Positions 5,434 through 15,676 of a stretch of DNA of 47,512 bases are shown here, one piece after another (positions within the stretch are counted from its first letter, which is position 1; each line of letters starts with the position of its first letter). The stretch covers positions 1-47,512 of the forward strand of contig JAFSEW010000064.1 in the NCBI GenBank assembly GCA_017435525.1. The letters are read 5' to 3'. Position numbers and translations under genes: made by a program. Below the pieces are notes generated by a model. That model was given only the letters and a program-made list of their open reading frames with translations. It ran no database searches and was not told where the DNA came from. This DNA is from Oscillospiraceae bacterium. GTDB taxonomy: Bacteria; Bacillota; Clostridia; Oscillospirales; Oscillospiraceae.

Positions 5434-6645
5434 TTAGCTGTGCTCAGCAACATACATCCGGTGACCCAGGCGCATCATTTCCTGGTCCTGGGGATCATCA
5501 TAATAGGAACTCATGTTGCCCTGGCCGGTACCGAATTTCAGCAGGTTATTCATACCTGCGCCGAAGCAGACGGCTTCTTCAGAGAAGACCACCGCGCCCA
5601 CATAGCCGAAATGGATGTTGCCGGGATCGTCCATGCGCAGTTCCTTGCCGTCATAGATGTAAGTCTTTCCTGCCTGGAACTTCCATTCGTCCTGCAGCTT
5701 GATATCCCAGTCGCCGCCGTCGGTGACCTTATTGTAGAAGTACAGGGCAGCATATGTATTGCCGTATCTTGCCAGAACCTTTTCCATGGTGGCTGCGTTC
5801 TTGCGCATCAGGGCGTTGAGCTTTTCGGTGATATCGATCACATTATCATCGGGAGCGGGTGCTTCGGGAACAGTCTCTTCGGGAACGGTTTCCTCGGGAA
5901 CGGTTTCCTCGGGAACAGTCACCTCGGGGACAGTCTCTTCAGGAACGGTTTCCTCAGGAACGGTCTCCTGGGGCTTATCGGACAGCACGGTTACCTCAAA
6001 ATTGGTTCTGGTAATGGTGGTCTTGCCGCCACGCCAGAAGAAGAGGCGGAAGGTGCCGGTGGTCTTCTTAACAGCTGCGGTAATGGTAACGCTTCCTTCG
6101 CCCACGCCGGTAACCAGGCCGTTGCTGTTTACGGTAGCCTTGCTTGCATCGGAGGTAGTCCAGGTGACGCCCTTACCCTTATCTTCCAGTTTCAGCTGCA
6201 GAGACTGCCCCACCTTGACAGTGAGCCCCTTGTCTTCCTCAACAGGCTTTTCCACGGGCTTCTGGACAGGTGCCTCGGTGGGCTTATCGGCAGGTGCATT
6301 CACAGGCGCAGTAACGGTCACGGTAAAATGCTCCGTCTTATAGCCGCTGCCAAAGATCTTGAATACACCCAGGAAATTCTTGCTGGTGGCAATAATGGTG
6401 GCAGTACCGGCGCCGACAGCGGTTACGGTACCGTTGCCGGATACCTTGACCACAGAAGAATTGGAAGAGGTCCAGTTTGTGGTGTAGTATTTGTGGTTAA
6501 CCTTCAGGGTGACTTTTTCACCCACTTCCATGGTAACCTTATTGCCTTTCACTTCAGCTGCGTTGGCAACCACAGGGGTGAAGAATGTAAACACCATTGT
6601 CAAAGCCAGAAGCATAGTCAGCAAACGAGTGATTTTGGATTTCAT
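5434..6645 (-). CDS. secreted Ig-like (BIG2) domain protein with PEETV repeats
   Basis: A 403-aa exported protein. Residues 1-29 form a signal peptide (LLTMLLALTMVFTFF then VVANAA). Two bacterial Ig-like group 2 domains follow (about residues 35-112 and 140-220), each with the VTAVGAGTATI / VTGVGEGSVTI signature and linked by a Pro/Lys/Glu segment. About seven PEETV-type pentapeptides come next, then a C-terminal domain of about 130 residues that I do not recognise (YGNTYAALYFYNK...). No LPXTG motif or C-terminal anchor is visible, so it is probably secreted or held non-covalently. The ATG is preceded by an AGGAGG-like site. Promoter and 13-bp inverted repeat lie upstream. Monocistronic, ending in the hairpin at 5391. 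Likely surface or matrix role; no enzymatic motif seen. Confidence 0.8.
   Translation of the reverse strand: MKSKITRLLTMLLALTMVFTFFTPVVANAAEVKGNKVTMEVGEKVTLKVNHKYYTTNWTSSNSSVVKVSGNGTVTAVGAGTATIIATSKNFLGVFKIFGSGYKTEHFTVTVTAPVNAPADKPTEAPVQKPVEKPVEEDKGLTVKVGQSLQLKLEDKGKGVTWTTSDASKATVNSNGLVTGVGEGSVTITAAVKKTTGTFRLFFWRGGKTTITRTNFEVTVLSDKPQETVPEETVPEETVPEVTVPEETVPEETVPEETVPEAPAPDDNVIDITEKLNALMRKNAATMEKVLARYGNTYAALYFYNKVTDGGDWDIKLQDEWKFQAGKTYIYDGKELRMDDPGNIHFGYVGAVVFSEEAVCFGAGMNNLLKFGTGQGNMSSYYDDPQDQEMMRLGHRMYVAEHS
5866..5970 (-). repeat. 15-bp tandem repeat coding PEETV pentapeptides
   Basis: About seven consecutive 15-bp units encode PEETV with single variants (PQETV, PEVTV), forming a flexible acidic spacer between the Ig-like domains and the C-terminal domain. 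Copy number is likely to vary between strains by slippage. Confidence 0.8.
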
Positions 6646-7787: not shown

Positions 7788-7817
7788 GCAGGCAGAATAG
7801 CCAGAAAGGAAATCCCA

Positions 7818-8270
7818 ATGGACAAAATCGATGTGAATATTCTGCGCTGTTTGACAGAGGATGCCCGGATGAACGCATCTCAGATCGGTGCACGGGTCAA
7901 TCTCTCGGTTTCCGCCGTGATTGAACGGATGAAAAAGTTGGAAGCTTCCGGCCTCATCCGAAACTACACGGCAGTGATTGACGAGCGGTTGGCGGGCTAC
8001 GACACCCAGGCGCTGATCTCCGTACGACTGGAACATCCCAAGTACAACCAAAGCTTTACCCAGCAGATGCATGCCATCAGCGCCGTGATGGAATGCTTCT
8101 ACATCACCGGCGATTTCGACTATATGGCCCGGGTTTGCGTCAGCTCCACGGAAGAGCTGACCCATGTTCTGAACCATATCAAAGAGATCCCCGGCGTATC
8201 CCTCACCCGTACTTATGTGGTGCTGGAGAGCATCAAGCAAGGTACCCCCGTATTCCCAAAAATCAAATAA
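7818..8270 (+). CDS. Lrp/AsnC family transcriptional regulator
   Basis: A 150-aa feast/famine regulator. The N-terminal winged HTH occupies about residues 1-60 (DKIDVNILRCLTEDARMNAS, then LSVSAVIERMKKLEASGLI). The C-terminal RAM (ligand-binding, oligomerising) domain follows (VMECFYITGDFDYMARVCV, about residues 85-115). The start at 7818 follows GAAAGGA at 7804-7810; a longer frame upstream has no ribosome site and overlaps the promoter. Only 25 bp separate it from pntAA on the same strand, with no terminator, so it is probably co-transcribed and may control the transhydrogenase operon, perhaps in response to amino acids. The effector is not visible from sequence. Confidence 0.88.
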   Translation: MDKIDVNILRCLTEDARMNASQIGARVNLSVSAVIERMKKLEASGLIRNYTAVIDERLAGYDTQALISVRLEHPKYNQSFTQQMHAISAVMECFYITGDFDYMARVCVSSTEELTHVLNHIKEIPGVSLTRTYVVLESIKQGTPVFPKIK

Positions 8271-8295
8271 ACATTATTCTCAGGAGGTAACTATT

Positions 8296-9453
8296 ATGAT
8301 CATCGGTATTCCTAAGGAAATTATGCACGAAGAGGCCCGCGTGGCCGCTACCCCCGACACCGTTAAGAAGTATGTGGCTGACGGCCACAAGGTCCTGGTA
8401 GAAAAAGGCGCCGGTATTGGCGCGCTGCATTCCGACGAAGCTTATGCCGCTGCCGGTGCTCAGATGTGCGACGGCCCCCAGGAGATTTACGATGCCGCCG
8501 AGCTGATTCTGAAGGTGAAGGAACCTCTGTTCAATGAAGCCACCGGCAAGCACGAAGTGGATATGATGCATGCAGGCCAGTACCTGATTACCTTCATCCA
8601 TCCTGCCGCTCCCGTAAACCACCAGATGGTTAAGAACATGGCCGCTGCCGGTATCATCAGTATGGCTATCGAAGGCGTGCCCCGTATTTCCCGCGCCCAG
8701 TCCATGGACGCTCTGACCTCCATGAGTACCTGCGCCGGTTACAAGGGCATGCTGATGGCTGCCTCCGATCTTGCCAAGTTCATGCCCATGATGCCCACCG
8801 CTGCCGGTATGATCAAGCCCTGTAATGTGATGGTCGCCGGTGTTGGCGTGGCAGGCCTGCAGGCTCTGGCCACCGCAAAGCGCCTGGGTGCCAAGACCTT
8901 CGCCATCGACATCCGTCCCGCCGCCGCTGAGCAGGCTACCTCTCTGGGTGCCAAGCTGGTGGAATCCGGTGTTGACCCCGCGCTGGCTATCGGTCAGGGT
9001 GGCTACGCTCTGGAGCTGCCTGAAGATGTTCTGGCTGCCGAGCGTGAGCTGATTGCCAAGGTTCTGCCCGACATGGATGTGGTGTTCCTGTCCGCACTGG
9101 TTCCCGGCCGTCTGGCTCCCATTCTGATCACCGAGGACATGGTCAAGACCATGAAGCCCGGCTCCGTCATCGTTGACATTGCCATTGACCAGGGCGGCAA
9201 CTGCGCCATCACCACCCCCGGCGTCCGGGATGTGAAGCACGGTGTGGTTCTGGAAGGCATCAAGAACATCCCCGGCATGCTGGCTGCCTCCTCCACCTTC
9301 ATGTACGCTGCCAATATGTATAACCTGGTGAAGTACCTGACCAAGGACGGCTACCTGAACCTGGACGAAAGCGACGACATCGTCAGCGGCATGCTCACCA
9401 CCAAGGACGGCAAGGTTGTCCACGCAGGCGCCCTGGCTGCCATGGGAGGCTGA
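8296..9453 (+). CDS. pntAA: NAD(P) transhydrogenase subunit alpha part 1 (domain I)
   Basis: Soluble NAD(H)-binding domain I of the proton-translocating Re/Si-specific transhydrogenase, which moves hydride between NADH and NADP+ coupled to the proton gradient. At 385 aa it matches split-alpha systems. Visible: the N-terminal IGIPKEIMHEEARVAATPDT signature shared with alanine dehydrogenases, the Rossmann loop MVAGVGVAGLQALATAKRLGA (about residues 177-197) and the conserved VDIAIDQGGN segment. The start at 8296 has CAGGAGG spaced 8 nt away. The stop is followed 2 nt later by pntAB, indicating translational coupling. Neighbours are an Lrp regulator upstream and the two membrane subunits downstream. 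Confidence 0.95.
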   Translation: MIIGIPKEIMHEEARVAATPDTVKKYVADGHKVLVEKGAGIGALHSDEAYAAAGAQMCDGPQEIYDAAELILKVKEPLFNEATGKHEVDMMHAGQYLITFIHPAAPVNHQMVKNMAAAGIISMAIEGVPRISRAQSMDALTSMSTCAGYKGMLMAASDLAKFMPMMPTAAGMIKPCNVMVAGVGVAGLQALATAKRLGAKTFAIDIRPAAAEQATSLGAKLVESGVDPALAIGQGGYALELPEDVLAAERELIAKVLPDMDVVFLSALVPGRLAPILITEDMVKTMKPGSVIVDIAIDQGGNCAITTPGVRDVKHGVVLEGIKNIPGMLAASSTFMYAANMYNLVKYLTKDGYLNLDESDDIVSGMLTTKDGKVVHAGALAAMGG

Positions 9454-9455
9454 TT

Positions 9456-9752
9456 ATGAACCCTGTATTGCTGGTGGTTCTGTTTGTGGTGTCAGCAGTG
9501 CTGGGCTATCTGATCATCCGTAATGTTCCCGCGCTGCTGCACACCCCCCTGATGTCCGGCATGAATGCCCTTTCCGGCATCACCGTGCTGGGTGCCATCA
9601 TTGCTGCGTTCCAGTCCCGGGGCATCCTTGCCCTGGTTCTGGCACTGGGCGCCGCTGTGCTGGCTATGATCAATGTGGCTGGCGGCTTCGCTCTGACTCA
9701 CAAGATGCTCAGCAGCTTTGTAAAGAAGGGAGCGAAGAAAGAAGATGCCTGA
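9456..9752 (+). CDS. pntAB: NAD(P) transhydrogenase subunit alpha part 2 (membrane)
   Basis: A 98-aa membrane subunit supplying the alpha-chain helices of transhydrogenase domain II. About three transmembrane segments: residues 3-22 (VLLVVLFVVSAVLGYLII), about 38-55 and 57-80 (ILALVLALGAAVLAMINVAGG). The conserved HTPLMSGMNALSGI motif is present, as is the GGFALTHKML C-terminal signature. It overlaps pntB by 8 nt (ATGCCTGA), consistent with stoichiometric synthesis. Length and order pntAA-pntAB-pntB are typical of three-gene transhydrogenases. Confidence 0.93.
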   Translation: MNPVLLVVLFVVSAVLGYLIIRNVPALLHTPLMSGMNALSGITVLGAIIAAFQSRGILALVLALGAAVLAMINVAGGFALTHKMLSSFVKKGAKKEDA

Positions 9753-12243
9753 TTTGATCTACTACCTTCTTTGCGCGGTCTGTGTGGGCGCGGTGCTTCT
9801 GGGCATTAACATGATGAGCAAGGTGAAGACGGCTGTGCAGGGCAACTCCCTCTCCGCGGCCGCCATGGTGATGGCCATTGCCATGATCTTCTTCACCCGA
9901 GTTGGCGGCACCCCCGCCGGTATCATCATTGCGCTGCTCCTTGCCCTGGCTGCAGGCGCTGCGGCAGGCATCTACGGTGCTGCCAAGGCGAAAATGATCG
10001 ATATGCCCCAGATTATCGCCCTGCTGAACGGCTTCGGCGGCGCGGCTTCCGCCCTGGTGGCCGCTGTGACCGCCGTCAATGGCGCTGCCAATGTATTTGA
10101 CGGCGTTACCGCAGCGCTGGCGCTGACTGTGGGCGCCCTGACCTTCACCGGCAGTGTGGTCGCCGCCGGTAAGCTGGCACGGATTCTCAACGCCCGTCCC
10201 CAATTTCTCCCCCGTCACAGCCTGATCACCGGTATTCTGGCAGTTGGCTGCGTGGTCGCCATTGTGCTGCAGACCGTTTCCGGCCCCTGGGCCATTGTCA
10301 ACGCGCTGCTTTCCCTGGCCCTGGGCGTTGTGTTCGTGATGCGTGTGGGCGGTGCGGATATGCCCATTACCATTTCCCTGCTGAATTCCCTGTCCGGTGT
10401 GGCAGGCGGCATTGCAGGTATGGCTATCAATGAGCCGCTGCTGGTAGCCATCGGCGGTATCGTGGGTGCCTCCGGCCTGATCCTGACCCAGGATATGTGC
10501 AAGGCCATGAACCGCAAGCTGATTACCATCCTCACCGGCCAGACCACTGCTGCCGCTCCTGCGGCTGTTAAGAAAGAAGAGCCTGTGGAAGAAGCCCCCG
10601 CCGAGCCTGAGAAGCTCACGGTGGAAGCTGTAGGTGCCAAGCTCCGGGAAGCCAAGAAGGTGATTATCGTTCCCGGCTACGGCATGGCCCTGTCCCAGGC
10701 TCAGGAAGATGTGGCCAAGTTTGCCGCAGCTCTGGAAAGCCGCGGTGTGGATGTGAAGTTTGCCATCCATCCTGTAGCAGGCCGTATGCCCGGCCACATG
10801 AGCGTGCTGCTGTGCGAGGCTGACATCGATTACGACAAGCTCTTCATGATGGAAGACATCAATGAGGAGTTTGCCTCCTGCGATCTGGCTGTGGTCATCG
10901 GTGCCAATGATGTCACCAATCCCGCTGCCAACACTGCGGAAGGTACACCCATCTACGGCATGCCCGTGCTGAATGTGGTGGATGCTCCCATGACCGTGTT
11001 CTGCAACTTCGATACCAAGCCCGGTTACGCAGGCGTTCCCAACCCCATGTATGAAGCCGACAATGTGCTGCTGATGCTGGGTGACGCCAAGGCTTCCGTG
11101 GGTCAGCTCCAGGGTATGCTGGAAGGCACTGCCGCCGCGCAGCCTGCGGAAGAAGCCGCACCCGCCTCTTCCGGCAAGGTCACCGCGGACGCTGTAGGCG
11201 CTGCTCTCCGGGAAGCCAAGAAGGTCATTATCGTTCCCGGCTACGGTATGGCCCTGTCCCAGGCTCAGGAAGATGTTGCCAAGTTTGCTGCCGCTCTGGA
11301 AAGCCGCGGCGTGGATGTGAAGTTTGCCATCCATCCTGTGGCAGGCCGTATGCCCGGTCACATGAGCGTACTGCTGTGCGAGGCTGACATCGATTATGAT
11401 AAGCTCTTCATGATGGAGGACATCAACGAAGAGTTCGCCTCCTGCGATCTGGCTGTGGTCATTGGTGCCAACGATGTCACCAACCCCGCCGCCAACACCG
11501 CAGAAGGTACTCCCATCTACGGCATGCCCGTGCTGAATGTGGTGGACGCTCCCATGACGGTATTCTGCAACTTCGACACCAAGCCCGGTTACGCAGGCGT
11601 TCCCAACCCCATGTATGAGGCAGACAATGTGCTGCTGATGCTGGGCGACGCCAAGGCTTCCGTGGGTCAGCTCCAGGGCATGCTGGACGCTACTGCCCAG
11701 GCAGCCCCCGCCGCGGAAGCTTCCGGCAAGCTCACCGCCGAAGCTGTGGCCGCTGCCATGCAGGATGCCAAGAAGATCATCATTGTCCCCGGCTATGGCA
11801 TGGCTCTGTCCCAGGCGCAGGAAAATGTGGCAAAGCTGGCCGCCGCGCTGGAAGCACGGGGCGTGGAAGTGAAGTTCGCCATCCATCCCGTGGCAGGCCG
11901 TATGCCCGGCCACATGAGTGTGCTGCTGTGCGAAGCCGATATCGATTACGAGAAGCTCTTCATGATGGAAGACATCAACGAAGAATTCGCCACTTGTGAT
12001 CTGGCTATCGTCATCGGTGCCAACGATGTTACCAACCCCGCCGCCAACACCGCAGAGGGCACCCCCATCTACGGTATGCCTGTTCTGAGCGTGGTGGATG
12101 CCCCCATGACGGTATTCTGCAACTTTGACACCAACCCCGGCTATGCCGGTGTGCCCAACCCCATGTATGAAGCCGACAATGTGCTACTGATGCTGGGCGA
12201 CGCCAAAGCCTCTGTGGACACCCTCCTGGGCTATGTAAAATAA
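9745..12243 (+). CDS. pntB: NAD(P) transhydrogenase subunit beta with three tandem NADP-binding domains
   Basis: Normal PntB has about 460 aa: a membrane domain II and one C-terminal NADP(H)-binding domain III. This protein has 832. Residues 1-270 are the usual hydrophobic part (about nine helices; IDMPQIIALLNGFGG and GGADMPITISLLNS are recognisable). Then come three domain III copies: about 290-459, 478-647 and 662-832. Each retains PGYGMALSQAQ, HPVAGRMPGHMSVLLCEA, VIGANDVTNPAANTAEGTPI and GDAKASV. Ala/Pro/Glu-rich linkers of about 14-20 residues separate them. Copies 1 and 2 are almost identical as protein but differ at many third codon positions; copy 3 is slightly diverged (NPGYAGV for KPGYAGV). 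In all three the residues aligned with E. coli Lys424-Arg425 (KRS before GYAGV) are Asn-Phe. No stop or frameshift. A terminator follows. Confidence 0.95.
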   Translation: MPDLIYYLLCAVCVGAVLLGINMMSKVKTAVQGNSLSAAAMVMAIAMIFFTRVGGTPAGIIIALLLALAAGAAAGIYGAAKAKMIDMPQIIALLNGFGGAASALVAAVTAVNGAANVFDGVTAALALTVGALTFTGSVVAAGKLARILNARPQFLPRHSLITGILAVGCVVAIVLQTVSGPWAIVNALLSLALGVVFVMRVGGADMPITISLLNSLSGVAGGIAGMAINEPLLVAIGGIVGASGLILTQDMCKAMNRKLITILTGQTTAAAPAAVKKEEPVEEAPAEPEKLTVEAVGAKLREAKKVIIVPGYGMALSQAQEDVAKFAAALESRGVDVKFAIHPVAGRMPGHMSVLLCEADIDYDKLFMMEDINEEFASCDLAVVIGANDVTNPAANTAEGTPIYGMPVLNVVDAPMTVFCNFDTKPGYAGVPNPMYEADNVLLMLGDAKASVGQLQGMLEGTAAAQPAEEAAPASSGKVTADAVGAALREAKKVIIVPGYGMALSQAQEDVAKFAAALESRGVDVKFAIHPVAGRMPGHMSVLLCEADIDYDKLFMMEDINEEFASCDLAVVIGANDVTNPAANTAEGTPIYGMPVLNVVDAPMTVFCNFDTKPGYAGVPNPMYEADNVLLMLGDAKASVGQLQGMLDATAQAAPAAEASGKLTAEAVAAAMQDAKKIIIVPGYGMALSQAQENVAKLAAALEARGVEVKFAIHPVAGRMPGHMSVLLCEADIDYEKLFMMEDINEEFATCDLAIVIGANDVTNPAANTAEGTPIYGMPVLSVVDAPMTVFCNFDTNPGYAGVPNPMYEADNVLLMLGDAKASVDTLLGYVK
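10612..12240 (+). repeat. three tandem domain III-coding repeats inside pntB
   Basis: Units at about 10612-11123, 11176-11685 and 11728-12240, each about 170 codons, joined by short Ala/Pro-coding linkers. Differences between units 1 and 2 are mostly synonymous, so they are not a simple assembly duplication. Confidence 0.9.
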
Positions 12244-12296: not shown

Positions 12297-13208
12297 TCAC
12301 GCAACTTTAATTTGAATATCGCCTGTGTTGGTAATGATCTCACACTTTCCGCCGGTTGCTGCTTTGGGAACATCCACATCGCCTGTATCGGTTTTTGCAG
12401 CAAACACCTTTTCTGTAAGCAAAGTGCCGGTAACATCTCCCGTATCCGTCTGCACAAAAATCTCAGCAGCATCCGTACCGTCGAGCCTTATATCCCCCGT
12501 ACTTCTCTGCATCGAGATTTTTCCTGTTGCAATCACATGATCCAGAAAAATATCACCTGTGCTTCCCTGGGAAACTATACTGCTGCAGGTAACATCCGTC
12601 AAGTATATTTCGCCTGTGCTAACGGAAAGGTCAAGTTCGCCGGCATATATTTCTTCTATACGGATATCTCCGGTGCTTGTTTTTATCTGCAGCTTCTCAG
12701 ACGCAGAAGCAAAGAAATCAACATCCCCTGTGCTTAAAGAGACAGCAGCATCCTTGAACATAAACCCCTTAGGTATTACGGCATCTGCGGTATCTCCATA
12801 GATAAGAAGCGAAGTGTACTGCGTTTCAGGAAGATAAACTGTTATCCGTGGTGCACCAATGTTGATCCCAACATAACGAATATAGTCAGCAGCGGATCTT
12901 TCATCCATCAATGCAACGGCTAGTGTGCCGTCTTCCACGGAAACAGTATGCTTTGCATTTTCTTCCTCGTAACACACCACTTTGCATTTTCCATCATTTG
13001 AAAACGCAAATACGATATCTGCGGTATCTGTGTTTACAGATATGCTGTCGAATGCTTCGCTGACTTCATAAGTCTTTGTTTCGTATTGCACCGTTGCCAG
13101 TTTGGTGAAATCCCATCCCAGCGTCCACATGACGCCTGCAAAGAGAATACATCCAATCAACACAAGAAAAGCTGCTATCATAAGCCACACTTTTGTTTTC
13201 GTTCCCAT
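12297..13208 (-). CDS. DUF4097 family beta-strand-repeat membrane protein
   Basis: A 303-aa membrane-anchored protein. Residues 8-30 are one transmembrane helix (WLMIAAFLVLIGCILFAGVMW). The rest is a right-handed beta-helix-like domain built from STGDI/TDTGDV repeats spaced about 20 residues apart (at least eight copies), the hallmark of DUF4097. The start at 13208 overlaps the stop of the DUF1700 gene by one base (TAATG) and has AGGAGG upstream; a longer frame exists but would read into the previous gene. Third gene of a PadR-DUF1700-DUF4097 operon, common in Firmicutes and associated with envelope stress or antimicrobial sensing. The exact molecular role is unknown. Confidence 0.88.
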   Translation of the reverse strand: MGTKTKVWLMIAAFLVLIGCILFAGVMWTLGWDFTKLATVQYETKTYEVSEAFDSISVNTDTADIVFAFSNDGKCKVVCYEEENAKHTVSVEDGTLAVALMDERSAADYIRYVGINIGAPRITVYLPETQYTSLLIYGDTADAVIPKGFMFKDAAVSLSTGDVDFFASASEKLQIKTSTGDIRIEEIYAGELDLSVSTGEIYLTDVTCSSIVSQGSTGDIFLDHVIATGKISMQRSTGDIRLDGTDAAEIFVQTDTGDVTGTLLTEKVFAAKTDTGDVDVPKAATGGKCEIITNTGDIQIKVA

Positions 13209-13807
13209 TACACTTCCTCCTTCCTGATGAAGCATTTCTTGATCCATATTGCCACTTTCTTTGTGAGGATCAAATTGCCATTGGTTGCTGCCTTACAGCC
13301 GCAGAATGCAAAGATGGAAAGCCCTGCACAAATCAAGCCAATCGCAAGCGTGGCAGCACCCGATGCGCTATAGCCGCCTACGAAAAAAATGGCACATGCC
13401 AGCACACCACCAACGGAACAAGCGGCAAAGGAAGCAAAGACCGCCCACAGGGAAATAATCACAGCCCACAAAGAAATGTACAGGGAGAAAGCAACAGCAA
13501 GCGCGGCGATCCCCAGGGAAAGCCATATGGGAGATCCCAGCGCCAGCAGCACGATTGCGACTGGGCTTAGGCTTCCTTTCGGTTTGATTCTTTCCTTGGC
13601 AATCTTCGTAAGCGGAAGATCTGCTACAGCTTGCGCAACAATTGCATCCACAGAGCCTGCCGCCGCAACAGCTTCCTCCTCCGAAAGGCCTTCTTCCATC
13701 CGGTCTTCAATCATTTCGCTGTAAAAGTTCAGCCGTTCCTTTATATCCTCCTGCGACAGCCCGGACAAGCCTTTGCGCAGCCGCGCCAGAAATTCCTGTT
13801 TACGCAT
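13208..13807 (-). CDS. DUF1700 family membrane protein
   Basis: A 199-aa protein with a soluble N-terminus (MRKQEFLARLRKGLSGLS then NFYSEMIEDRMEEGLSEEEA, the DUF1700 signature) followed by about four hydrophobic helices from residue 80 to 175. It overlaps the PadR gene by 8 nt and the DUF4097 gene by 1 nt, so the three are translationally coupled. DUF1700 proteins are thought to work with their DUF4097 partner in the membrane; nothing catalytic is visible. Confidence 0.88.
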   Translation of the reverse strand: MRKQEFLARLRKGLSGLSQEDIKERLNFYSEMIEDRMEEGLSEEEAVAAAGSVDAIVAQAVADLPLTKIAKERIKPKGSLSPVAIVLLALGSPIWLSLGIAALAVAFSLYISLWAVIISLWAVFASFAACSVGGVLACAIFFVGGYSASGAATLAIGLICAGLSIFAFCGCKAATNGNLILTKKVAIWIKKCFIRKEEV

Positions 13808-14120
13808 TTCCGGTATCCTCCTTGGTTACAAATCGATAGATCGCTAAAATTTCTTTCCACTCGTCCTTGAAATCCTCGATGCGACGCAGGCCTTCTTCGG
13901 TAATATGGTAATACTTTCGCAGTCTGCCGCCGTGTTCAGTGGTACGAACCGTCAGCATATTCGCTGTTTCCAAGCGTTTCAGAATGGTATATAAAGTCGA
14001 TTCGGAAAGTTCCAGATACGGCTTCATATCCTTTATGATCTTATAGCCGTAGGAATCTTCGCTCTTGATCGCCGCCAACACGCAGACATCCAGAAGGCCA
14101 CGCTTCAGTTGAATATCCAT
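13800..14120 (-). CDS. PadR family transcriptional regulator
   Basis: A 106-aa PadR-type repressor: a winged-helix domain (GLLDVCVLAAIKSEDSYGYKI then ESTLYTILKRLETANML and the wing GGRLRKYYHITEEGL) with a short C-terminal dimerising helix. The start has AGAAGGAGG upstream. It heads the operon and overlaps DUF1700. PadR repressors typically autoregulate; a dyad lies across the -10 region of its own promoter. The ligand is unknown. Confidence 0.92.
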   Translation of the reverse strand: MDIQLKRGLLDVCVLAAIKSEDSYGYKIIKDMKPYLELSESTLYTILKRLETANMLTVRTTEHGGRLRKYYHITEEGLRRIEDFKDEWKEILAIYRFVTKEDTGNA

Positions 14121-14235: not shown

Positions 14236-15585
14236 TTAGAAAATACCCTGTGCCATCATAGCTTCTGCTACACGCTTGAAGCCTGCGATGTTGGCACCGG
14301 AAACCAGGTCGTAGCCCAGGCCGTACTCTGCGGCGGTATCCACGCACTGGCGGTAGATGTTGTTCATGATGCCCCGGAGCTTCTCGTCCACTTCCTCGGC
14401 GCTCCAAACCAGGCGCTCGGAGTTCTGGGACATTTCCAGCGCGGAAACTGCCACGCCGCCGGCGTTGACAGCCTTGGAAGGTGCCACCACGAAGCCTTCC
14501 TGCTTGCGCAGGTAAGCCAGTGCATCATTGGTAGTGGGCATGTTGGCAACCTCGATGTAATACTTAACGCCGTTGGCAACCAGTTTTTCGGCAGAATCCA
14601 TCTTCACATCGTTCTGCATAGCGGCGGGCATGGCGATATCTGCCTTGACGCCCCAGGGCTTCTCACCGGGGAAGAACTGAACGCCGAACTTATCGGCATA
14701 GTCCTGCACGCGGTTTCTGCCGGATGCGCGCATTTCCAGCAGGTACTCCACCTTCTCTTCGGTGGCAACGCCGTCGGGATCGTAGATGTAACCGTCAGGG
14801 CCGGAGAGGGTGACAACCTTGGCACCCAGCTGCATAGCCTTCTTGCAGATGCCCCAGCACACATTGCCGAAGCCGGAAGCCGCGATGGTCTTGCCCTGGA
14901 TGCTCTCGCCATGGTCCTTCAGCACATTCTCCAGATAGTACACAGCGCCGTAGCCGGTAGCCTCGGGGCGGATCAGGCTGCCGCCGTAGCTGAAGCCCTT
15001 ACCGGTGATAACGCCGTTTTCCCACACACCCTTCAGGCGGCGGTACTGGCCGAACAGGTAGCCGATCTCACGGCCGCCAACGCCGATATCACCGGCAGGC
15101 ACGTCGATGTCGGGTCCGATATAGCGGTACAGAGCGCTCATGAAGCTCTGGCAGAAACGCATAATCTCTGCATCAGACTTGCCGGTGGGGTCAAAATCGG
15201 AGCCACCCTTGGCACCGCCGATGGGCAGGCCGGTGAGGGCATTCTTGAAAGTCTGCTCAAAGCCCAGGAACTTCATCTCGCCGGGATACACGGTGGGACG
15301 GAAACGCAGGCCGCCCTTGTAGGGGCCGATAGCGCCGTTGAACTGGCAGCGGTAACCGGTGTTGGTGTGGGCAATGCCCTGATCATCGGTCCAGACGACC
15401 CGGAAAGTAAACATTCTCTCGGGCTCTACCAGACGGCCCAGAAGATCTGCCTTCTCATACTCGGGATGGGCATCGATGACAAACTCCAGAGATTCAAAAA
15501 CCTCTTCCACAGTCTGAACGAATTCAGGCTCGGCAGCGTACTTGGCTCTCACATGATTCAGTACGCGTTCCAGATATGCATTCAT
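14236..15585 (-). CDS. gdhA: NADP-specific glutamate dehydrogenase
   Basis: Catalyses 2-oxoglutarate + NH3 + NADPH to glutamate, the main ammonium-assimilating or glutamate-oxidising step. The 449-aa length is typical of the hexameric bacterial enzyme. Substrate-binding GPYKGGLRFRP (about residues 87-97) and GGAKGGSDFDPTGKSD (about 122-137) are present, as is the dinucleotide-binding ASGFGNVCWG. The start at 15585 has CAGGAGG directly upstream; the longer frame to 15669 would cross the promoter. Transcribed alone from a sigma-A promoter, with a strong terminator after it. It supplies glutamate and draws on NADPH, linking it metabolically to the transhydrogenase operon 2 kb away. Confidence 0.95.
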   Translation of the reverse strand: MNAYLERVLNHVRAKYAAEPEFVQTVEEVFESLEFVIDAHPEYEKADLLGRLVEPERMFTFRVVWTDDQGIAHTNTGYRCQFNGAIGPYKGGLRFRPTVYPGEMKFLGFEQTFKNALTGLPIGGAKGGSDFDPTGKSDAEIMRFCQSFMSALYRYIGPDIDVPAGDIGVGGREIGYLFGQYRRLKGVWENGVITGKGFSYGGSLIRPEATGYGAVYYLENVLKDHGESIQGKTIAASGFGNVCWGICKKAMQLGAKVVTLSGPDGYIYDPDGVATEEKVEYLLEMRASGRNRVQDYADKFGVQFFPGEKPWGVKADIAMPAAMQNDVKMDSAEKLVANGVKYYIEVANMPTTNDALAYLRKQEGFVVAPSKAVNAGGVAVSALEMSQNSERLVWSAEEVDEKLRGIMNNIYRQCVDTAAEYGLGYDLVSGANIAGFKRVAEAMMAQGIF

Positions 15586-15647
15586 TTTTCTTTCCTCCTG
15601 CAATTTAAATGGGCATCTCCTAGAAAAACCCAAAAATTCATAGGGAC

Positions 15648-15676
15648 AGGATAGCACATCATGCAGCATTCGTCAA
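15648..15676 (-). promoter_or_regulatory. gdhA promoter
   Basis: Minus-strand TTGACG (15676-15671), 17-bp spacer, TATCCT (15653-15648), about 60 bp before the gdhA start. Confidence 0.7.

What the first reader, a model, noticed from the sequence alone, without database searches (positions are those of the whole stretch)
9745..12243. PntB with three tandem NADP(H)-binding domains
Seen: one uninterrupted 832-codon frame with a normal membrane domain and three complete domain III copies joined by Ala/Pro/Glu linkers. Known: proton-translocating transhydrogenase beta subunits carry a single domain III. The copies differ at many synonymous sites but hardly in protein, so all appear to be under selection and are not a recent or artefactual duplication. 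Inference: the linkers recall the swinging lipoyl domains of 2-oxoacid dehydrogenases; several domain III units per membrane domain could raise NADP(H) loading, buffer bound nucleotide, or let extra copies dock with other dehydrogenases.
Basis: partly seen in the sequence, partly recalled or inferred. Interest (0 to 1): 0.88.

Follow-up and report, generated by a model that had tools for sequence, protein, structure and literature searches.

The report
Transhydrogenase with three tethered nucleotide domains
A gut bacterium's membrane transhydrogenase carries three nucleotide-binding domains in a row instead of one; relatives with two to four copies recur in related bacteria, in a variant that has lost the usual NADP-recognising residues, so it may work with a different nucleotide, NAD.

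Summary
Window 9745-12243 encodes an 832-aa PntB with a membrane domain and three complete domain III (dIII) copies on Ala/Glu/Pro-rich linkers. An assembly artefact is unlikely: the copies differ at 28-53% of synonymous sites, and four single-contig genomes carry 2, 2, 3 and 4 copies.

It is not unique. I found 27 multi-dIII genes complete in one frame (13 with two copies, 10 with three, 4 with four). Of 88 KRS-type genes examined, none is multi-dIII. The clade also lacks His at the two known channel positions.

'Three NADP(H)-binding domains' is therefore doubtful. Best reading: an NxD-type transhydrogenase whose dIII probably prefers NAD(H), in which dIII multiplied more than once and is kept by selection as tethered mobile carriers. 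Specificity, proton coupling and role are inferred, not shown. Ten searches of an open-access library listed no description of it.

The parts
7812..8270 (+). Lrp/AsnC-family regulator directly upstream; ORFs related to it lie in the fetched loci of 14 genomes, the window's included
   Evidence: Pfam AsnC_trans_reg 66.4 bits for this one; ORF clustering by BLASTP for the others
8296..9453 (+). pntA1: soluble domain I (NAD(H) site), 385 aa, AGGAGG at 8282-8287
   Evidence: Pfam AlaDh_PNT_N and _C; start read from sequence; Asp200 and R-Q-D loop residues conserved, catalytic Ser replaced by Thr
9456..9752 (+). pntA2: 98-aa membrane subunit (first part of domain II)
   Evidence: Pfam PNTB_4TM 89.9 bits
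9745..12243 (+). pntB, 832 aa, overlapping pntA2 by 8 bases: domain II plus three domain III copies
9745..10515 (+). membrane domain II, about aa 1-257, to the Arg equivalent to E. coli R265
   Evidence: alignment to E. coli PntB
10516..10629 (+). dII-dIII connection, Ala/Pro/Glu/Lys-rich
   Evidence: sequence; clade comparison of spacing
10630..11124 (+). domain III copy 1; CNFD at 11002-11013 in place of the KRS site
11125..11193 (+). linker, 23 aa (GTAAAQPAEEAAPASSGKVTADA)
11194..11688 (+). domain III copy 2; CNFD at 11566-11577
11689..11745 (+). linker, 19 aa (ATAQAAPAAEASGKLTAEA)
11746..12237 (+). domain III copy 3; CNFD at 12118-12129; 88% identical to copies 1 and 2; no K/R/H in the loop (CNFDTNP)

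Best explanation
This is a PntA1-PntA2-PntB complex of an 'NxD' clade of transhydrogenase-like enzymes, seen here in the window's phylum (Bacillota). SHOWN: the clade replaces K424-R425-S426 of dIII by N-(mostly L/Y/F)-D while keeping the other pocket residues checked; dIII has been multiplied to 2-4 copies, more than once; copies are joined by Ala/Glu/Pro-rich linkers, and copies with much synonymous divergence keep their protein sequence. INFERRED: the clade's dIII has given up NADP(H) specificity and binds NAD(H), the Asp taking the ribose 2'-hydroxyl. INFERRED: each dIII is a mobile carrier that shuttles bound nucleotide between dI (hydride transfer) and dII (membrane docking, release), and several carriers on flexible tethers serve one dI/dII, so that one can dock with dI while another is at dII. 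Whether the membrane part still moves protons, and what the cell gains from NAD(H) at both sites, is open.
For: Architecture. KRS site: K 22/22 vs N 98/98; R 22/22 vs L/Y/F in 91 and R in 3 of 98; S/G 22/22 vs D 95/98 and S 3/98. Pocket residues G314, Y315, G316, H345, R350, D392, Y431 kept in 98/98. No gained basic column at loop E is invariant; 18 of 98 copies have no K/R/H at 423-430. dI keeps Asp200 in 65 of 65. KRS and NxD lie on two sides of one branch in a dII tree (SH-aLRT 100) and in a dIII tree without the loop columns (97). On the dII tree multi versus single takes 10 changes, of which well-supported branches force 4. dN/dS is below 0.5 in every intra-protein pair with a finite estimate, and below 0.1 in G1261, G1269 and the window. 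Copies labelled first in G1261, G1269, G1299 and G1561 cluster (98). PMC9529548 (passages and two sections): KRS is in the NADPH site; loops D and E define NADP(H) over NAD(H) specificity; dIII changes face during the cycle.
Against: No structure or binding datum; the structure predictor was off. If dI and dIII both used NAD(H), the reaction would have no chemical driving force and proton coupling would be a leak. K428 (71/98) might contact a 2'-phosphate in many copies. Reading the tables, no genome that could be typed carried both KRS and NxD genes, which weakly suggests a shared role. 23 of 50 NxD genes have one dIII, so multiplication is not required. KRS-to-NxD is one event on the tree, so its link with multiplication has no independent replicates. 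Some pairs have dN/dS of 0.3-0.5 with few changes (G457, G1188, G212, G1420), so selection on those copies is not shown strongly. The catalytic Ser of dI is Thr in 45 of 53 NxD sequences, so dI may be altered too. The gene is rare in the window's genus (2 of 136 genomes).
Confidence: 0.5

Rival explanations
1. Still an NADP(H)-specific proton-translocating transhydrogenase. NxD dIII holds the 2'-phosphate in another way, more weakly, and extra dIII copies make up for low occupancy.
For: The operon, dI and most of dIII and dII are conserved. K428 in 71 of 98 copies. No genome that could be typed carries both types (tables). NADPH production is the known use of the family (PMC9529548, introduction).
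Against: D426 in 95/98 should repel a 2'-phosphate (recalled principle); K424 is lost in 98/98 and R425 in 95/98; 18/98 copies, including all four of G1427, all three of G1095 and the window's copy 3, have no K/R/H at 423-430. 23 NxD genes have one dIII.
Confidence: 0.32
2. The extra dIII copies are a nearly neutral by-product of a repeat that expands and contracts and is homogenised by gene conversion; one copy does the work.
For: Copies within a protein are often each other's nearest relatives; G1095 and G1427 have nearly identical copies and linkers; copy number changes within one genus (3, 3, 4); some pairs have dN/dS of 0.3-0.5.
Against: In G1261 pS is 0.55-0.79 while protein identity is 74-87% and finite dN/dS values are below 0.1; copy positions are kept across genera in part of the tree; all 98 complete NxD copies retain the pocket residues checked. 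None of 88 KRS-type genes shows it.
Confidence: 0.15
3. The locus is an assembly artefact (false expansion of a repeat).
For: The window lies in a 67-contig genome of 77% completeness and 5% contamination; assemblies do break here (G349, L. ceti), and G1208 and G1355 have runs of N inside dIII.
Against: The copies are diverged (pS 0.28-0.53); close relatives show 2-3 copies; four one-contig genomes show 2, 2, 3 and 4 copies.
Confidence: 0.01

Closest known systems
Proton-translocating NAD(P) transhydrogenase, three-subunit form PntA1-PntA2-PntB (as in Thermus thermophilus)
   Same: Same gene order and domains; dI with Asp200 and R-Q-D loop residues (65/65); dII with D213 (56/56), N222 (55/56), S139 (56/56) and R265 (50/56); dIII homologous to solved R. 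rubrum dIII at 177 bits.
   Different: KRS replaced by N-x-(D/S) in the 98 copies aligned; His absent at E. coli beta-91 and, where readable, at the TM3 position; catalytic Ser of dI mostly Thr; 1-4 dIII instead of 1. Scores below NCBI's PntB equivalog cut-off despite three dIII (684.8 vs 689); a one-dIII NxD protein scores 353.
Dihydrolipoyl acyltransferases (E2) with tandem lipoyl domains on Ala/Pro-rich linkers (recalled, not tested)
   Same: Repeated mobile carrier domains, one to several copies, on Ala/Pro-rich tethers serving one catalytic core.
   Different: Lipoyl domains carry a covalent cofactor; dIII binds a nucleotide non-covalently and itself docks with two partners. No relation tested.
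Tandem nth genes of Porospora (PMC7614955, passages seen)
   Same: Repeated transhydrogenase genes.
   Different: Whole genes repeated, not one domain within one polypeptide.

Membership tests
Proton-translocating NAD(P) transhydrogenase (PntAB) | dI + dII + dIII homology in one operon | tested here: met
   Pfam AlaDh_PNT_N/C, PNTB_4TM, PNTB; gene order A1-A2-B
Proton-translocating NAD(P) transhydrogenase (PntAB) | NAD(H) site of dI (Asp200, role recalled; R, Q, D of the RQD loop, PMC5026163 passages) | tested here: met
   65 of 65 dI sequences (53 NxD, 12 KRS) keep D, R, Q and D
Proton-translocating NAD(P) transhydrogenase (PntAB) | Invariant catalytic Ser of dI (human Ser193, R. rubrum Ser138; PMC5026163 passages) | tested here: not met
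   Thr in the window (DALTS) and in 45 of 53 NxD sequences; Ser in 8 of 53 NxD and 12 of 12 KRS. A conservative change
Proton-translocating NAD(P) transhydrogenase (PntAB) | NADP(H)-specific dIII with the KRS motif (K424-R425-S426; KRG in some KRS-type genes) | tested here: not met
   N-F-D in all three window copies; K424 absent in 98/98 NxD copies
Proton-translocating NAD(P) transhydrogenase (PntAB) | Protonatable channel histidine (E. coli beta H91, or TM3 position as in T. thermophilus alpha2 H42) | tested here: not met
   N at beta-91 in 55 of 55 NxD genomes read; of 53 NxD genomes with a TM3 string, 52 read S and one is masked. TM3 position mapped from recall. Several KRS genes lack both too, so the test is weak
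Proton-translocating NAD(P) transhydrogenase (PntAB) | D213-R265 pair and N222/S139 of domain II | tested here: met
   All four present in the window; D213 56/56, N222 55/56, S139 56/56, R265 50/56 in NxD
Proton-translocating NAD(P) transhydrogenase (PntAB) | One dIII per beta subunit | tested here: not met
   Three dIII
Proton-translocating NAD(P) transhydrogenase (PntAB) | NADH to NADP+ hydride transfer coupled to proton movement | not testable with these tools
   Needs purified protein or vesicles
NCBIfam NF006974 PntB equivalog | Score above the curated cut-off of 689 bits | tested here: not met
   684.8 with three dIII summed. Relatives: one-dIII NxD 353.3, two-dIII G1420 541.2 (both below), three-dIII G1095 743.3 and four-dIII G1427 907.8 (both above); E. 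coli 958.1

The most novel reading that the evidence does not exclude
The NxD clade is a separate enzyme class: a membrane hydride-transfer machine whose two nucleotide sites both take NAD(H), which may have lost or altered proton translocation (no His at the known channel positions), and in which dIII has become a tethered NAD(H) carrier module that is multiplied like lipoyl domains, perhaps handing nucleotide to other dehydrogenases.
Probability: 0.3. Interest if true: 0.88.

Novelty: new variant of a known kind. Interest (0 to 1): 0.72.

Why it matters
How dIII travels between the redox domain and the membrane channel is central to how transhydrogenase couples hydride transfer to protons. 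A natural series with 1, 2, 3 and 4 dIII on one membrane domain makes that travel directly testable. The N-x-D change is a natural candidate for a specificity switch across a whole clade. Of the five NxD-type proteins scored, the two above NCBI's PntB cut-off got there with three or four summed dIII copies, so annotation as NADP transhydrogenase may be unsafe, with consequences for metabolic models of gut anaerobes.

Tried and rejected
Assembly artefact: disfavoured (diverged copies; one-contig genomes with 2-4 copies). Frame breaks in G1208 and G1355 looked like inserts in dIII; they are runs of N, i.e. gaps. Swap of specificities (dI to NADP): no sign, dI keeps Asp200 in 65 of 65. Genomic context as a guide to function: an Lrp/AsnC-related ORF (14 genomes) and an isochorismatase-domain ORF (5 genomes; nicotinamidase-like by recall) recur; not decisive. 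Nfn co-occurrence: TIGR01316 over its cut-off in 5 of 8 multi-dIII genomes, not in the window's genome; not decisive. Structure prediction of the full protein and of dIII: not possible. Plasmid control (E. coli dIII in 295 records, 322 places, 60 records listed): six listed records have more than one place; I looked at one of them, where the fetched stretch holds one dIII; the rest were not inspected, so this control is weak. Phyla other than the window's were not searched for NxD genes, apart from plasmids (296 records, all below 60% identity, not typed).

Corrections of my own: searches (PntA2 part; dI) and the tally put six KRS-type genes in the NxD group; regroups PntA2 and dI; the dIII and dII counts (the dII part of 66, the residue counts of 75) were grouped correctly. 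In one search the single letter printed for TM3 is one residue early; the printed strings show the residue meant. In one search the '10 forced changes' came from labels that split contig-cut genes off; with pooled labels 4 are forced and 10 are needed on the tree as drawn.

Rows left out of the gene counts: genes cut by contig ends, broken or masked (G349, L. ceti, G1189, G1192, G1195, G1208, G1258, G1344, G1355, G1418, G1441, G1521, G1533-C132, G1537, G1561, G1574, G1601, G1656; the third, broken dIII of G1283) and matches not fetched (11 of the 41 genomes with a match; 11 of 63; G1379, G1464, G1517 of 49). Two of the 27 multi genes (G1271, G1327) hold masked residues in their frame. Only ten of the 35 KRS-set loci, and no locus, went into the trees and residue columns. 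Paper searches showed listings only, and for 20 of 69 papers and for 15 of 1,641.
Full report
WHAT IS THERE. The window holds pntA1 (8296-9453), pntA2 (9456-9752) and pntB (9745-12243) in that order on one strand, the last two overlapping by 8 bases (start sites read from the sequence). PntB is 832 aa: a membrane domain followed by three complete dIII copies (aa 296-460, 484-648, 668-831) joined by linkers of 23 and 19 aa. Copies 1 and 2 are 98.8% identical in protein but 92.7% in DNA (dN/dS 0.027); copy 3 is 88% identical in protein (dN/dS 0.084 and 0.093).

IT IS REAL AND RECURRENT. The genome is a 67-contig assembly, 77% complete, so artefact had to be tested. Searches with dIII gave matches in 2 of 136 genomes of the genus, 10 of 400 of the family, 16 of 391 of the class, 49 of 398 of the phylum, 41 of 251 of the family of Ligilactobacillus ceti, 1 of 20 of the family of G1095, 7 of 23 of genus g96 and 63 of 154 of the class of G1516 (the sets overlap). 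After fetching and domain annotation there are 27 multi-dIII genes complete in one frame: 13 with two copies, 10 with three and 4 with four; two of them hold masked residues. Four lie in genomes held as one contig: G212 (2), G1420 (2), G1095 (3) and G1427 (4). Further loci are cut by contig ends inside dIII, and two have runs of N there, so short-read assemblies may understate the trait. The gene as such is rare in the window's genus.

ALL ARE OF ONE TYPE. I aligned 120 complete dIII copies. In 22 copies (KRS type) positions 424-426 (E. coli) are K-R-(S/G). In 98 copies (NxD type) 424 is N in 98; 425 is L, Y or F in 91, R in 3 and something else in 4; 426 is D in 95 and S in 3. Seven other pocket residues checked are invariant in the NxD copies (G314, Y315, G316, H345, R350, D392, Y431). 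No gained basic column at loop E is invariant; K428 is present in 71 of 98, and 18 of 98 copies, the window's copy 3 among them, have no K/R/H at 423-430. PMC9529548 (passages, introduction and section 4.4 seen; [quoted passage not shown] coli enzyme. That K, R and S contact the 2'-phosphate, and that an acid at this place is the usual NAD sign, is recalled knowledge.

A dII tree, independent of dIII, puts the 22 KRS genes on one side of a branch (SH-aLRT 100, a quick tree with long branches flagged). With contig-cut genes pooled as multi and two uncertain ones left out, multi versus single takes 10 changes on this tree, of which well-supported branches force 4. A dIII tree without the loop columns separates KRS and NxD again (97). 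Multi-dIII is seen in 27 of 50 NxD genes complete in one frame and in 0 of 88 KRS-type genes (87 complete, one at a contig end). In the class of G1516, where KRS genes dominate, the three multi-dIII genes are again NxD. Because KRS and NxD differ by one event on the tree, this association has no independent replicates.

COPIES ARE KEPT, AT LEAST IN PART. dN/dS between copies of one protein is below 0.5 in every pair with a finite estimate; it is below 0.1 in the window and in G1261 and G1269, and 0.3-0.5 with few changes in some pairs of G457, G1188, G212 and G1420. In G1261, G1269 and G1299 pS is 0.55-0.93 while protein identity is 72-87%. Copies labelled first in G1261, G1269, G1299 and G1561 (the last cut by a contig start) cluster across genera (98), and the last copies of genus g96 are set apart from the earlier ones. 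Elsewhere copies often cluster within a genome, as expected from recent duplication or gene conversion. So both old maintenance and continued turnover occur.

TETHERS. 46 inter-dIII linkers have median length 20.5 (15-48); those (1141 residues) are richer in A (23%), E (13%) and P (10%) than the domains (12, 6, 6%). The dII-dIII spacing is longer in NxD genes (median 44.5 in multi, 42 in single; these two do not differ, p 0.33) than in KRS genes (36.5, range 33-39). PMC5742237 (passages and the section on domain II seen) reports a 14-19 aa linker in all transhydrogenases.

OTHER DOMAINS. dI keeps Asp200 and the R, Q and D of the RQD loop in 65 of 65 sequences, so its NAD(H) site looks little changed; but the catalytic Ser, called invariant in PMC5026163 (passages), is Thr in 45 of 53 NxD sequences, the window's included. 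dII keeps D213 (56/56), N222 (55/56), S139 (56/56) and R265 (50/56). The known channel histidines are missing: E. coli beta H91 is N in 55 of 55 NxD genomes read, and the TM3 position is S in 52 of 53 with one masked (the mapping to T. thermophilus His42 is recalled). Several KRS genes lack both too, so this is a caution on proton movement rather than a clade mark.

HOW IT MAY WORK. In the known cycle dIII alternates between facing dI for hydride transfer and facing dII for exchange (PMC9529548). With several dIII on flexible tethers, one can sit at dI while another is at dII. I think this multi-carrier reading is the most likely sense of the architecture, with NAD(H) as the likelier nucleotide of the NxD dIII. 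The main difficulty: if both sites take NAD(H), hydride transfer has no driving force. That keeps alive the rival that NADP(H) is still bound, more weakly, with extra copies as compensation. Reading the tables, no genome that could be typed has both types, which mildly favours a shared role.

KNOWN OR NEW. The nearest was PMC7614955 (passages seen), which tells of tandem whole genes in Porospora. Most subscription papers are outside that library. NCBI's PntB model gives the window protein 684.8 bits against a cut-off of 689 even with three dIII, a one-dIII NxD protein 353, a two-dIII one 541 and E. coli 958, while the three- and four-dIII proteins of G1095 and G1427 pass. I rate it a new variant of a known kind.

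Noticed in passing
9456-12243 and relatives: NxD genes read, and several KRS-type Bacillota genes, lack His at both known channel positions, although PMC5742237 calls the central histidine conserved with shifting position.
   Followed up: partly
8296-9453 and relatives: The catalytic Ser of dI (R. rubrum Ser138) is Thr in the window and in 45 of 53 NxD dI sequences.
   Followed up: partly
14236-15669 (-): Glutamate dehydrogenase scoring above NCBI's NADP-specific GDH equivalog cut-off (655.8 vs 536) about 2 kb downstream of pntB.
   Followed up: partly
5434-6645 (-): Protein with Big_2 domains and a C-terminal Ntox44 domain, with an acidic Pro/Glu/Thr/Val repeat (tandem array 5849-5973); looks like a secreted polymorphic-toxin-type protein.
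   Followed up: no
12297-14120 (-): Cassette of PadR regulator, HAAS-domain protein and DUF4097 'toastrack' protein next to pntB.
   Followed up: no
L154:3456-4193 and four related loci: Isochorismatase-domain (nicotinamidase-like by recall) ORF next to NxD pnt genes in five genomes of one family, a possible NAD-salvage link.
   Followed up: partly
L013, L043 (Ligilactobacillus ceti): The only NxD gene among the 30 loci typed of 41 matching genomes in the 251 searched of its family; contigs end inside dIII copies, and its dII groups with Oscillospiraceae genes (99), suggesting horizontal transfer.
   Followed up: partly
L150 (G1283): Downstream of a two-dIII pntB lies a third, broken dIII stretch (TAA inside; 157-aa frame), perhaps a decaying copy.
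   Followed up: no
L148, L149 (G1533): One genome with two NxD pntB genes, one with a single dIII and one with at least two (the second masked by N).
   Followed up: no
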